From contig CAMZLH010000018.1 of NCBI GenBank assembly GCA_947311565.1, positions 1-39,796 on the forward strand: a stretch of DNA of 39,796 nt, in the 5' to 3' direction. Within the stretch, counting starts at the first letter, position 1. Every line of letters starts with the position of its first letter. The notes under the pieces were generated by a model. The model was not told the origin of the DNA and did no database searches. It saw only the letters and a program-made list of their open reading frames with translations. Source of the stretch: an uncultured Nitratifractor sp. (GTDB lineage: Bacteria > Campylobacterota > Campylobacteria > Campylobacterales > Sulfurovaceae). Below, one piece after another: positions 22,808 through 30,521 of the stretch. Both the position numbers and the translations under genes were made by a program.

Positions 22808-25273
22808 TCAATTTACAACTCCATAATAGGCTTGTCCAAGCGAAATAGCAGCATCATTTGATGACATATTCTTTGACAACATTAATCGTTTATTAATATC
22901 ACTATTTAAAATAATATTCACTAAAGTTCTATTTTGAAATACACCACCACATAAAACTACTCGATACTCTAAATACTCTTTTGATATATCAATAACCATC
23001 TTAGCAATAGTATTTATAAATTTAGTTGCAATCTGCTCTTTTGAATCTTTTAAAATCTCTTTTACTATTTGGCTTAAATCTATTTTTCTATCAACTATTT
23101 TATAAGAGTAACTATCTTTAATTTTAAAGTTATATAAAGATTCTATCATCATTCCACTCTCGCCCTCATAACTGCTATTTTGCATAATATCTGCAAAAGA
23201 TGCAACAGCATCAAATAGCCTACCAATAGAGCTTGTTTGTGGGGTATTTATACCATCTTTCCAGCTTTTATGTAACAATTTTATCTCATAATCTTTAAAA
23301 GATTTTATTGTTGGAGAATTTAATTTTAAAACTTCATCTAAACTAAAAGAGTCAAAAAGCAGACTTAGAGCTACTCTCCTTGTCTCTTTAATTGCTCTTT
23401 TCCCTCCAAGCAACTTAAATTGTTTAAGAGATAGCACTCTTTTAAAATCTTTAATATTTGCAATAAAAACCTCTCCTCCCCACAAAGTTCCATCACTCCC
23501 AAACCCAGTACCATCAAAACTAAAACATAAAGCCTCATTTGTAAAATTATGCTCAGCCATTACAGCCAAAGCGTGTGCAAAGTGGTGTTGAACTTTAGTA
23601 GTTTTTAACTTTTCATTTTTCGCTTTTAACTCATTAGCTACTTTTACAGATTCATAATTTGGATGTAAATCACTAACAATAATATTTGGCTCAAACTCAT
23701 AAAATCTCTTAAACTCTTTAATAGTTCTCTTAAAATACTCAACACTATCAATAGTATCCAAATCACCAATATGAGGAGAGATTATAATCTTATCATCTAA
23801 AGTAATGGCGATAGTGCTCTTTTGGTTTGCACCAACAGCTAAGATAGAGTTTAGTAGGTATGAGTTAGTATGTAGATTCGAGGGTTTACTATCTCCTCTA
23901 TCATACCCAGCTTGACTGGGTATCTCACTATTTATAGTATTACTTTTACGATAATAGTGAATAAATTTAGTTTTTAACTCTTCATTTTTCACTTTTAACT
24001 TAATAGATAATGGTGCTACTCCTCTTGCTACTCTAATCCACTGCACATACCCATCAATTACTTGCACAACACTATCATCTATTGAGTGAACTATCTCTCT
24101 ATTGTAATCTAATATAGCATCTACAACACTGCCAAGCTTTACTTCAAGCTCTTCTATATCTCTAATAATTGGCTCTCCACTAATATTTGCACTTGTTACA
24201 ACTATTGGAAAATCGATATTTTCAAAAAGTAGATAGTGAATAGGCATATATGGTAACACTATCCCTACCCTATCAATATTTGGGGCAATAGAATTTGATA
24301 AATTAGAACGCTTACTATCTAACAAAACTATAGGTCTAATATTAGAAGTTAAAAGCTCCTCCTCTTTTGGTAAAATTTGAGCATACTCTTTTGCCATCTC
24401 TAAAGAGTTACACATTATAGCAAATGGCTTTGCTGGTCGTCTCTTTCGAACTCTAAGCTCTTCTACAACTCTACTATTTGTAGCATCACAAACCAAATAA
24501 AACCCACCAACCCCTTTAATAGACAAAATAGCACCATCTTTTAAAAGATTAGCAACAGTTTTAAAAATTTGATCTACATAATCAACTTGATCAACTCTCT
24601 TCTCTGCGTCATACTCAGCTTGACTGATTATCTTATTATGCAAATTAGCACTTTTGCAATAGTGGCGACCAAATTTAGTTTTTAACTCTTCATTTTTAAA
24701 TTTTAACTCTAATGTCGGTCCACACTCCCAGCAACTTATAGGTTGGGCATGGTAGCGTCTATCAAGAGGGTCCATATACTCCTCTTTACAACTGCTGCAC
24801 ATCTTAAAGTCACTCATAGAGGTATTGACTCTATCATAAGGTACATCTTTAATAATACTCCATCTTGGACCACAATTAGTACAGGTAATAAATGGATGTT
24901 TATATCTTTTGTTACTTTTATCTTTAAACTCAGTTAAACAATCGCTACACAAAGTTATATCAGGAGCAACAGAGGTTATCTTATTAGCACCATCAATAGA
25001 GTCTAAAATCTTAAACTCCCCTACTTTACTATCACTATCTCTAACACTAATAACCTCAATAGAGTCAATCTTGCTAAGAGGTGGTGGATTGTTTTTTAAT
25101 CTATCTAAAAAGTTATCTATCAGCTCCTCTTTACCAACTATCTCTATCTCAACACCGCTTCCATCATTTAAAACCCAGCCACAAAGATTTAAACTCTTAG
25201 CCAAATTATAAACAAAAGGTCTAAACCCAACCCCTTGCACAATACCTTTAATCGTAACTTTAACTCTTTTCAT
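22808..25273 (-). CDS. hypF: Carbamoyltransferase HypF, with repeat-derived insertions
   Basis: Makes the cyanide ligands of the [NiFe] site from carbamoyl phosphate, passing the group to HypE. Domains in order: acylphosphatase (VKVTIKGIVQGVGFRPF), two zinc fingers (CSDC...CTNC and CSSC...CWEC, about 109-184), YrdC-like (IKGVGGFYLVCDAT, RKRRPAKPFAIM) and the Kae1-like part (VQHHFAHALAVMAEH, FDGTGFGSDGTLWGGE, GGVFQNRTL). The start is ATG 25273, 14 bases inside the TPR gene; a TTG five codons earlier is possible. At 821 residues it exceeds the usual 750-770: residues about 190-225 and 425-470 are insertions encoded by repeats (KNEELKTKF...ISQAEYD and KNEELKTKF...PSQAGYD), with a third short piece KAKNEKLKT before VQHH. 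All catalytic motifs survive, so it is probably functional. Confidence 0.93.
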   Translation of the reverse strand: MKRVKVTIKGIVQGVGFRPFVYNLAKSLNLCGWVLNDGSGVEIEIVGKEELIDNFLDRLKNNPPPLSKIDSIEVISVRDSDSKVGEFKILDSIDGANKITSVAPDITLCSDCLTEFKDKSNKRYKHPFITCTNCGPRWSIIKDVPYDRVNTSMSDFKMCSSCKEEYMDPLDRRYHAQPISCWECGPTLELKFKNEELKTKFGRHYCKSANLHNKIISQAEYDAEKRVDQVDYVDQIFKTVANLLKDGAILSIKGVGGFYLVCDATNSRVVEELRVRKRRPAKPFAIMCNSLEMAKEYAQILPKEEELLTSNIRPIVLLDSKRSNLSNSIAPNIDRVGIVLPYMPIHYLLFENIDFPIVVTSANISGEPIIRDIEELEVKLGSVVDAILDYNREIVHSIDDSVVQVIDGYVQWIRVARGVAPLSIKLKVKNEELKTKFIHYYRKSNTINSEIPSQAGYDRGDSKPSNLHTNSYLLNSILAVGANQKSTIAITLDDKIIISPHIGDLDTIDSVEYFKRTIKEFKRFYEFEPNIIVSDLHPNYESVKVANELKAKNEKLKTTKVQHHFAHALAVMAEHNFTNEALCFSFDGTGFGSDGTLWGGEVFIANIKDFKRVLSLKQFKLLGGKRAIKETRRVALSLLFDSFSLDEVLKLNSPTIKSFKDYEIKLLHKSWKDGINTPQTSSIGRLFDAVASFADIMQNSSYEGESGMMIESLYNFKIKDSYSYKIVDRKIDLSQIVKEILKDSKEQIATKFINTIAKMVIDISKEYLEYRVVLCGGVFQNRTLVNIILNSDINKRLMLSKNMSSNDAAISLGQAYYGVVN
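23600..23631 (-). repeat. 32-bp heptamer-built AT repeat inside hypF (copy 3)
   Basis: Minus strand: four 7-base units of GTTAAAA type (GTTAAAA, GCGAAAA, ATGAAAA, GTTAAAA) framed by A and ACT. Encodes KAKNEKLKT in HypF. The same unit recurs at 23969, 24677, 30276 and, as a variant, 37621. Confidence 0.7.
23903..23923 (-). repeat. TCAAG-loop palindrome inside hypF
   Basis: Perfect 8-bp stem (ATACCCAG / CTGGGTAT) around the loop TCAAG on the minus strand, followed by GAT. Read in frame as PSQAGYD. Paired with the heptamer repeat at 23969-24000 as one composite insertion of about 100 bp. Confidence 0.7.
23969..24000 (-). repeat. 32-bp heptamer-built AT repeat inside hypF (copy 2)
   Basis: Minus strand units GTTAAAA, GTGAAAA, ATGAAGA, GTTAAAA framed by A and ACT; translated as KVKNEELKT. 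It differs from copy 1 (24677) in only a few bases, and the 35-45 bases after it are also similar between the two copies. Confidence 0.7.
24611..24631 (-). repeat. TCAAG-loop palindrome inside hypF (one mismatch)
   Basis: Stem ATAATCAG / CTGAGTAT with one mismatch around TCAAG on the minus strand, followed by GAC; read as ISQAEYD. Same arrangement and frame as the copy at 23903. Confidence 0.65.
24677..24708 (-). repeat. 32-bp heptamer-built AT repeat inside hypF (copy 1)
   Basis: Minus strand repeat translated as KFKNEELKT, directly after the second zinc finger of HypF. It is the upstream half of a composite insertion that ends with the palindrome at 24611-24631. Confidence 0.7.
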
Positions 25274-29911: not shown

Positions 29912-29933
29912 ATAGTATATTCCTTTGTCCCAA

Positions 29934-29963
29934 ATTATGCAATATAAATCACCTGCCTTTCAA
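29934..29963 (-). promoter_or_regulatory. Candidate hydDE promoter
   Basis: Minus strand -35 TTGAAA (29958-29963), 18-base spacer, -10 CATAAT (29934-29939). Each box matches the sigma-70 consensus at five of six bases. It would start transcription about 15-20 bases before hydD, downstream of the hairpin at 29970-30049, making hydDE separable from hydABC. Confidence 0.45.
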
Positions 29964-29969
29964 TAGTCA

Positions 29970-30049
29970 TTGTGCCGTGGGCATTTACAAAAAATCATCG
30001 CCTAACCTTTCGATTAAGCTCAAATTTTTTGCAAACACCCACAACACAA
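29970..30049 (-). ncRNA. 80-nt long hairpin, probable structured RNA upstream of hydD
   Basis: Arms 29970-29995 and 30024-30049 form a 26-bp stem without a mismatch when read as minus-strand RNA, using five G-U pairs. On the plus strand those five become C-A mismatches. The 28-nt cap folds further: UU/U and tandem G-A next to a G-C, then CUUAAUC/GGUUAGG (7 pairs, two G-U), closed by a GAAA tetraloop of the GNRA class. The strand-specific wobble pattern argues for selection on an RNA. It lies between a terminator-like hairpin (30111-30128) and the hydD promoter. It matches no RNA family I can name; a foldback mobile element is the main alternative. Confidence 0.5.
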
Positions 30050-30110
30050 GCACTATCACTAATTTTGGCAATCCTATTACATAATTTTGGTTTATAAAAT
30101 CTTTAAAAAC

Positions 30111-30128: not shown

Positions 30129-30169
30129 CACAAACTTACGAAGCGACTACAAATAAGGCTTTTAAAAAC

Positions 30170-30217
30170 TTTTAGAAACTCTACAAAAGGAGGCAACCAA
30201 AAGTAGAGTTTCTAAAA
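30170..30217. terminator. 15-bp inverted repeat in the hydC-hydD gap
   Basis: Perfect arms 30170-30184 and 30203-30217 (TTTTAGAAACTCTAC and its complement) around an 18-nt loop. On the minus strand it is followed by GTTTTTAAAAG, so it may act as a first terminator or an RNA-stabilising structure at the end of hydABC mRNA. Confidence 0.5.
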
Positions 30218-30275
30218 ATATTTAAATATACAAGATGTGAACCTTTATGCTCACTAAAATATAAAAAACAATATT

Positions 30276-30307
30276 AGTTTTTAACTTTTCATTTTCAACT
30301 TTTAACT
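30276..30307 (-). repeat. 32-bp heptamer-built AT repeat, intergenic copy
   Basis: Same family as the three copies in hypF; minus strand units GTTAAAA, GTTGAAA, ATGAAAA, GTTAAAA. Same orientation relative to transcription as in hypF. Confidence 0.7.
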
Positions 30308-30392
30308 CTCTATCAACACCTGCTCATTAACGGGCTTTATTTAGCAACTTGATTTATTTAAACAAACCTCATTTTCCATATTCTGTGTATAG

Positions 30393-30415
30393 ATACCCCA
30401 ATCAAGTTGGGGTAT
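30393..30415 (+). repeat. TCAAG-loop palindrome, intergenic
   Basis: Perfect 9-bp stem ATACCCCAA / TTGGGGTAT around TCAAG, followed by GAC. The stem differs from the hypF copies while the loop and the following bases are the same. Confidence 0.7.
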
Positions 30416-30429
30416 GACGAAAGCTCGTC

Positions 30430-30452
30430 ATTGTCGGGCTTGACCCGACAAT
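30430..30452 (-). repeat. TCAAG-loop palindrome, intergenic, opposite orientation
   Basis: Perfect 9-bp stem ATTGTCGGG / CCCGACAAT; the loop is CTTGA on the plus strand, TCAAG on the minus, followed by GA. Head-to-head with the copy at 30393. Confidence 0.7.
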
Positions 30453-30521
30453 CTAAATCATTAAAAAACTAAAACCTCATTTTTAGTAAACAATATTCTG
30501 TAATCAGTAATCAGAATATAG

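What the first reader, a model, noticed from the sequence alone, without database searches (positions are those of the whole stretch)
29970..30049. Strand-specific 80-nt hairpin with a GAAA tetraloop between a terminator and the hydDE promoter
Seen: two 26-base arms pair with no mismatch on minus-strand RNA, but five positions pair only as G-U; the other strand would have five C-A mismatches. The cap forms another 7 pairs (two G-U), a tandem G-A internal loop and a GNRA tetraloop. Such one-sided wobble drift is the mark of an RNA kept folded by selection. It is bounded by a terminator-like hairpin and by a separate hydD promoter, so it may be a free small RNA or a processed leader of the hydrogenase maturation genes. 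I recognise no known family.
Basis: partly seen in the sequence, partly recalled or inferred. Interest (0 to 1): 0.7.

Follow-up and report, generated by a model that had tools for sequence, protein, structure and literature searches.

The report
Jumping DNA encoding a folded RNA
The hairpin is the core of a 162-base jumping element, scattered through many Campylobacterales genomes and probably moved by IS1380-type transposases, whose RNA fold has been preserved by matched mutations on one strand only, so evolution appears to be keeping a folded RNA inside a genomic parasite.

Summary
The hairpin is real and strand-specific (minus-strand RNA -46.9 kcal/mol, plus -19). It is not a stand-alone hydDE leader or a single-copy sRNA gene. 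It is the centre of a 162-nt palindromic miniature transposon (MITE; window 29929-30090) with CCC...GGG ends, sitting between 5-bp direct repeats. Its relatives occur in 26 of 299 sampled Campylobacterales genomes, in at least 15 genera. Perfect 5-bp target duplications flank 47 of 68 copies in an independent set (chance about 4), and one exact empty site was found in a sister species. IS1380-family insertion sequences in the same family of bacteria share the ends (CCCAAAT..) and the 5-bp duplications, so an IS1380-type transposase is the likely mobiliser. No intact IS with the window copy's exact end was found. The GNRA loop is not conserved, and the 'separate' hydD promoter lies inside the element. 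Best reading: an IS1380-mobilised MITE carrying a conserved rod-shaped RNA, probably working like NEMIS or ERIC. Transcription and RNA function are untested.

The parts
29929..30090 (-). Whole mobile element (MITE), 162 nt, nearly full-length imperfect palindrome; structured RNA reads on the minus strand
   Evidence: homologous dispersed copies begin and end here; family length 157-168 nt; minus RNA -75.6 kcal/mol
29970..30049 (-).
   Evidence: covariance-model hit 29966-30053 at 101 bits
30075..30090 (-). Left terminal inverted repeat (CCAAAATTATGTAATA, minus strand); next to it TAGGAT, where many related copies have the -10-like TAGAAT
29929..29944 (+). Right terminal inverted repeat (CCCAAATTATGCAATA read inward on the plus strand)
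30091..30095 (.). 5-bp target duplication, left copy (ATAAA on minus strand)
   Evidence: 5-bp duplication is general in the family
29924..29928 (.). 5-bp target duplication, right copy (ACAAA on minus strand; 1 mismatch to the left copy)
29997..30022 (-). Conserved 3x3 internal loop (UGA on the left side, GAU on the right side) enclosing the cap helix
   Evidence: loop columns U 40/40, G 33/40, A 38/40; partner side G 39/40, A 40/40, U 40/40
29934..29963 (-). Promoter-like match TTGAAA-18-CATAAT facing hydD, formed by the element's own right arm and end
   Evidence: pattern match only, not evidence of function

Best explanation
This is a miniature non-autonomous transposon of 162 nt with CCC...GGG inverted ends that inserts with a 5-bp A/T-rich duplication (consensus near TTWAA). 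It is most likely moved in trans by IS1380-family transposases. Shown: dispersed copies, 5-bp duplications, an exact empty site, shared ends with an IS1380-family IS, and a rod-shaped RNA fold conserved by compensatory change on one strand across many genera. Inferred: when transcribed, by read-through or from a -10-like box in the left end, the RNA folds into a rod spanning the whole element with two conserved internal loops. A double-strand-specific nuclease such as RNase III, or a binding protein, then recognises the rod, so the insert is processed out of or insulated within host mRNA, as reported for NEMIS and ERIC. That would make insertions between genes tolerable and would explain why the lineage keeps the fold. 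The G-U-rich arms also keep the DNA from being a perfect, unstable palindrome while the RNA stays fully paired.
For: Mobility: copies scattered in the same and other genera; 21/35 and independently 47/68 perfect 5-bp duplications, with no signal at other lengths; exact empty site with one TTTAT. Transposase: IS1380-family IS copies in G220 end in CCCAAATCCGTAAATAG with duplications TTAAA, ATGAT and TTTAT; MITE copies in the same genus end in CCCAAATCCGGAAATAG or CCCAAATCCTGAAGTAG; the G453 IS ends in CCCAAATCACGAAAT, as does MITE copy L191. RNA: 34/37 pairs with double-sided change, 94.9% of cells paired against 75.3% in shuffles and at most 47% when slid; G-U 261 to A-C 15; all 35 aligned copies fold better on the same strand; changes within close subfamilies also favour G-U over A-C, 34 to 10 distinct. 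DDE transposition of double-stranded DNA needs no one-strand fold, which points to RNA (established knowledge).
Against: No transcript was tested. No intact IS1380 element with the window copy's own end (CCCAAATTATGCAATAG) was found, and the own genome has no IS1380 hit. A truncated IS1380 in G032 lies next to CCCAAATTTTGCAATC, which is suggestive only. The -10-like TAGAAT occurs in 73 of 125 left ends and 1 of 125 right ends, but this could be a by-product of how the ends pair. The nuclease step has no direct evidence. Orientation toward neighbouring genes shows no clear preference, so a fixed cis-regulatory role is unlikely.
Confidence: 0.8

Rival explanations
1. The element is a mobile small-RNA gene: a promoter in its left end makes a free rod-shaped RNA that acts in trans, for instance by binding a host protein or the transposase mRNA, and this activity rather than passive processing keeps the fold.
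For: Two nearly invariant internal loops in otherwise fast-changing arms; near-fixed length of 157-168 nt; TAGAAT in 73 of 125 left ends but 1 of 125 right ends; MITE-derived sRNAs are reported in Coxiella (PMC5896051).
Against: No transcript, terminator or target known; the window copy has TAGGAT, not TAGAAT; some subfamilies lack the box.
Confidence: 0.3
2. Plain MITE: the palindrome is only a by-product of the transposon ends, and the strand bias is inherited from one founder by descent.
For: All copies share ancestry; MITEs are commonly palindromic; 5-bp duplications and IS1380-like ends explain the mobility.
Against: Arms diverge strongly between subfamilies yet stay paired through double-sided changes (265 cells against 85 in shuffles); distinct G-U changes outnumber A-C within subfamilies 34 to 10; internal loops are conserved far from the ends.
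Confidence: 0.08
3. Leader or processed RNA of the hydrogenase maturation genes hydDE.
For: The element ends 17 nt before the hydD start, and a promoter-like match facing hydD lies in its right end.
Against: Most relatives have hydC-hydD gaps of 0-110 nt, too short for the element; other copies lie beside unrelated genes in all orientations. At most this one copy may supply a promoter.
Confidence: 0.05
4. The strand-specific fold is used as single-stranded DNA (as in integron attC sites or IS200/IS605 ends) rather than as RNA.
For: One-strand hairpins are used this way in known systems, and G-T is tolerated better than A-C in DNA (own knowledge).
Against: Precise 5-bp target duplications, IS1380-like ends and an empty site indicate double-strand DDE transposition, which such single-strand systems do not leave.
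Confidence: 0.05

Closest known systems
NEMIS / Correia elements (Neisseria)
   Same: Intergenic MITE of similar size with long inverted ends, duplicated target, and transcripts forming a long hairpin; RNase III processing and promoters reported for Correia (PMC10969869, PMC2229807)
   Different: Unrelated host phylum; TA at the ends instead of CCC ends with a 5-bp duplication. I found no report of cross-genus covariation, which is the main evidence here; the search was not exhaustive.
ERIC / IRU and YPAL (enterobacteria, Yersinia)
   Same: Palindromic repeats of 127-168 bp in multiple copies, RNA folds, orientation-dependent effect on mRNA stability for ERIC (PMC2229807)
   Different: Different ends, target duplication and hosts. 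Sequence relation was not tested directly.
QMITE1 / QMITE2 (Coxiella burnetii)
   Same: MITEs giving rise to stable structured small RNAs; QMITE2 is 150-190 bp (PMC5896051)
   Different: QMITE1 is 300-400 bp with 2-3 nt repeats and QMITE2 has 7-11 nt repeats; no orthologues in other genomes were found for QMITE1.
IS1380 family insertion sequences
   Same: Terminal sequence CCCAAAT... and 5-bp target duplications, seen here in G220
   Different: Autonomous, about 1.66 kb, with a transposase gene; the MITE carries only the ends plus the structured RNA region.
RUP (Streptococcus pneumoniae)
   Same: MITE assigned to an IS family by matching ends and target (PMC2229807)
   Different: IS630-related, TA target; no structure signature reported beyond its ends.

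Membership tests
MITE (non-autonomous miniature transposon) | Short (<~400 bp), no transposase gene | tested here: met
   157-168 nt; on average 2-5 stops per frame
MITE (non-autonomous miniature transposon) | Terminal inverted repeats | tested here: met
   CCC(A/G)(A/G)AT.. and its inverse, in 96 of 125 copies by a fixed rule
MITE (non-autonomous miniature transposon) | Target site duplication of fixed size | tested here: met
   5 bp: 47/68 perfect, null mean 3.9, max 11 in 1000 shuffles; window copy 4 of 5
MITE (non-autonomous miniature transposon) | Multiple dispersed copies and an empty site | tested here: met
   empty site in G220 for the G032 copy L175
IS1380-mobilised MITE | Ends and duplication size match an IS1380-family IS | tested here: met
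   For subfamilies of another genus of the same family: CCCAAATCCGTAAATAG and 5 bp
IS1380-mobilised MITE | Intact IS1380 partner with the window copy's exact ends | tested here: not met
   No IS1380 (PF13701) in the own genome; no IS-size end pairs in three complete genomes searched with a related end pattern; only a truncated IS1380 near CCCAAATTTTGCAATC
Conserved structured RNA family | Covariation supporting one fold on one strand | tested here: met
Known Rfam family | Match at or above the gathering score | tested here: not met
   Window copy: nothing near threshold. 20 loci with divergent copies: only flanking tmRNA, tRNA-Sec and purD
NEMIS/ERIC-type RNA-processed repeat | RNase III or RNase E processing of the transcript | not testable with these tools
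   Needs RNA from the host or a heterologous assay
hydDE leader RNA | Conserved upstream of hydD in relatives | tested here: not met
   hydC-hydD gap is 0-110 nt in most relatives

The most novel reading that the evidence does not exclude
A selfish structured-RNA gene: a mobile element whose product is a free rod-shaped RNA with two conserved internal loops, made from a promoter in its own left end and needed for the element's spread or persistence, and carried between genera of Campylobacterales by swapping IS1380-type ends.
Probability: 0.25. Interest if true: 0.85.

Novelty: new variant of a known kind. Interest (0 to 1): 0.62.

Why it matters
Bacterial MITEs with hairpin transcripts are known. 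Here a family spanning at least 15 genera keeps one strand's RNA fold through compensatory change while the ends diversify with IS1380-type transposases. That separates selection on the RNA from selection on the transposon ends and makes a long-standing question testable: is the hairpin of such repeats a by-product, or what lets them persist? No Rfam family was matched, so a covariance model could annotate many now-unlabelled repeats and warn against calling them host riboregulators.

Tried and rejected
Rfam: no family. Plasmid and phage collections: no match. DDE_Tnp_1 (PF01609) transposases as mobiliser: few, no matching end pair; one near-match end in L164 belongs to a different IS with its own ends. 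Solitary left ends first suspected to flank an IS turned out mostly to be short palindromic derivatives of about 34-75 nt. IS-length pairs of the MITE end in three complete genomes: none. GNRA tetraloop as a family trait: rejected, loop is NNNA. Leader of hydDE: rejected. Conserved coding frame: rejected as the driver, mean 2-5 stops per frame, although 15-22 of 125 copies are open in a given frame of the opposite strand, so chance in-frame fusions are possible. An empty site at the window locus itself could not be aligned because the relatives at hand lack similar flanks. Literature searches found no description of this family; the library is open-access only.

Full report
Observation. The minus strand of window 29970-30049 folds into the reported hairpin at -46.9 kcal/mol (z -11.9), the plus strand at only -19. 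The pairing continues outward to the ends of a 162-nt unit: -75.6 against -33.3 kcal/mol for 29912-30110.

It is a dispersed repeat. A 389-nt query around the hairpin matched a unit of about 166 nt, and little outside it, at many places in same-genus genomes (nine copies of 81-94% identity in G006; many in G007, G009, G001 and G008) and in a few other genera. An end-pattern search counted 125 ends in G007, 71 in G009 and 8 in the own genome, with almost none for the reversed control pattern. A covariance model of the core hit 26 of 299 Campylobacterales genomes in 15 of 81 genera, up to 14 copies each (14 is the per-genome scoring cap, so a lower bound). Among named genomes it hits Sulfurimonas, Hydrogenimonas, Nitratifractor and SZUA-451 MAGs. 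The window's own family is probably Sulfurovaceae (inference from those matches).

It transposes. Aligned copies end in CCC...GGG. Exactly 5 bp flanking the two ends are duplicated: 21 of 35 perfect, mean identity 0.897 against a shuffled 0.717 (sd 0.025), with no comparable excess at 3, 4, 6, 7, 8 or 9 bp. In an independent set, mostly from other genera, 47 of 68 are perfect, against a mean of 3.9 and a maximum of 11 in 1000 shuffles. Target consensus is near TTWAA and element length 157-168 nt. A copy in G032 (TTTAT-162 nt-TTTAT) has an exact empty site with a single TTTAT in the 94%-identical sister genome G220. The window copy has ATAAA and ACAAA, one mismatch, and an altered left end (CCAAAA for CCCAAA), so it is an older insertion.

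What moves it. PF01609 transposases were few and had no matching end pair. The 5-bp A/T-rich duplication and CC start suggested the IS1380 family (own knowledge), and the search bore this out. G220 has near-identical IS copies of about 1.66 kb whose transposase matches PF13701. Their ends read CCCAAATCCGTAAATAG and their duplications are TTAAA, ATGAT and TTTAT. MITE copies of the same genus end in CCCAAATCCGGAAATAG (L255) or CCCAAATCCTGAAGTAG (L211). A second IS1380 in G453 ends in CCCAAATCACGAAAT, like MITE copy L191. For the window's own end, CCCAAATTATGCAATAG, only a truncated IS1380 beside CCCAAATTTTGCAATC was found. The own genome has no IS1380 hit, and three complete genomes have no IS-length pairs of the related end. 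The family assignment is therefore well supported; the exact partner is missing.

The RNA. In 35 copies oriented by BLAST and aligned arm to arm without a wobble bonus there are 2002 Watson-Crick, 357 G-U and 45 A-C pairs; every copy folds better on the same strand. In 40 diverged cores aligned without gaps, 94.9% of cells pair (shuffles 75.3%, slid partners at most 46.8%) and 34 of 37 pairs have changes on both sides. There are 265 double-change cells against 85 in shuffles. On this strand G-U outnumber A-C 261 to 15. The shuffle control ignores relatedness, so I also counted distinct changes within close subfamilies: 34 G-U against 10 A-C replacing Watson-Crick pairs (binomial p 0.0004), though these are not fully independent either. 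Two unpaired motifs are nearly fixed while the arms change: a 3x3 loop UGA/GAU under the cap (a potential tandem G-A motif) and a 2x2 loop GC/UG lower down. The tetraloop varies except for its last A, so the GAAA of the window copy is accidental. In one search, and for the copies taken from the model search, orientation followed the better model score, which could favour G-U; one search used BLAST orientation and is the cleaner evidence, and the 17:1 ratio is far beyond what such a choice could produce.

Setting. Most copies are intergenic. Neighbour orientations are spread over all four classes (36, 26, 26, 17, a simple ORF caller), which argues against a fixed leader or 3'-end role. At the window locus the hydC-hydD gap is 691 nt, against 0-110 nt in most relatives, so hydDE does not need the hairpin. 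The best promoter match facing hydD lies inside the element's right arm, so this copy might supply a promoter to hydD after separating it from hydC. That is speculation.

How it works. Shown: a MITE with 5-bp duplications, IS1380-type ends, and a strand-specific RNA fold kept by compensatory change. Inferred: the element is transcribed at least sometimes on the structured strand, by read-through or from the -10-like TAGAAT found in 73 of 125 left ends but 1 of 125 right ends. Its rod is then processed by a double-strand nuclease or bound by a protein, making insertions tolerable. The precedents are NEMIS and ERIC for processing and QMITE for MITE-derived sRNAs (PMC10969869, PMC2229807, PMC5896051). 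G-U-rich arms would also avoid a perfect DNA palindrome while keeping the RNA paired. I put the MITE at about 0.95, selection on the RNA at about 0.9, IS1380 mobilisation at about 0.85 and RNase-type processing at about 0.35.

Novelty. The kind (hairpin-forming MITE) is known. The combination of cross-genus covariation, nearly invariant internal loops and changing IS1380-type ends was not found in the papers searched, and the RNA matches no Rfam family. I rate it a new variant of a known kind.

Noticed in passing
window 30161-30226: Another inverted repeat (24-nt arms, 92% complementary, 18-nt loop AAAAGGAGGCAACCAAAA) in the same hydC-hydD gap.
   Followed up: partly
window 30272-30310 and about 30390-30480: Two further short repeat families in the same gap: one recurs near 23596, 23967, 24675 and 37616 in the window, the other on contigs C51, C65, C60, C46 and C21 of the own genome. 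The gap is a pile-up of repeats.
   Followed up: partly
L055 2944-2985, L057 3099-3142, L056 2683-2757, L059 1511-1586, L156 about 1501-1549: Short palindromes of about 34-75 nt with the same ends but no RNA core; in L055 and L059 they sit between perfect ATAAA duplications. The ends alone seem enough for movement.
   Followed up: partly
L218 (G301:C2): A diverged relative of the core lies next to the tmRNA gene (Rfam tmRNA match at 580-954, core at 1001-1087).
   Followed up: no
L182 1420-1590 (G230:C47): A copy appears to sit between two tRNA genes, judged from flanking sequence only.
   Followed up: no
L215, L216, L217 (G168) and L194 (G274): A different multi-copy repeat (about 273 nt shared among the G168 copies) hits the model weakly and has a similar capped hairpin but other ends.
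   Followed up: no
L177 1501-1729 (G074): Two core hits head to head within 230 nt: an element next to a partial or second-subfamily copy.
   Followed up: no
L270, L273, L275 (G126) and L289, L292, L302, L304, L306: A separate IS group with weak PF13701 similarity and ends CTCAACTTTCGCA, widespread in Campylobacterales.
   Followed up: no
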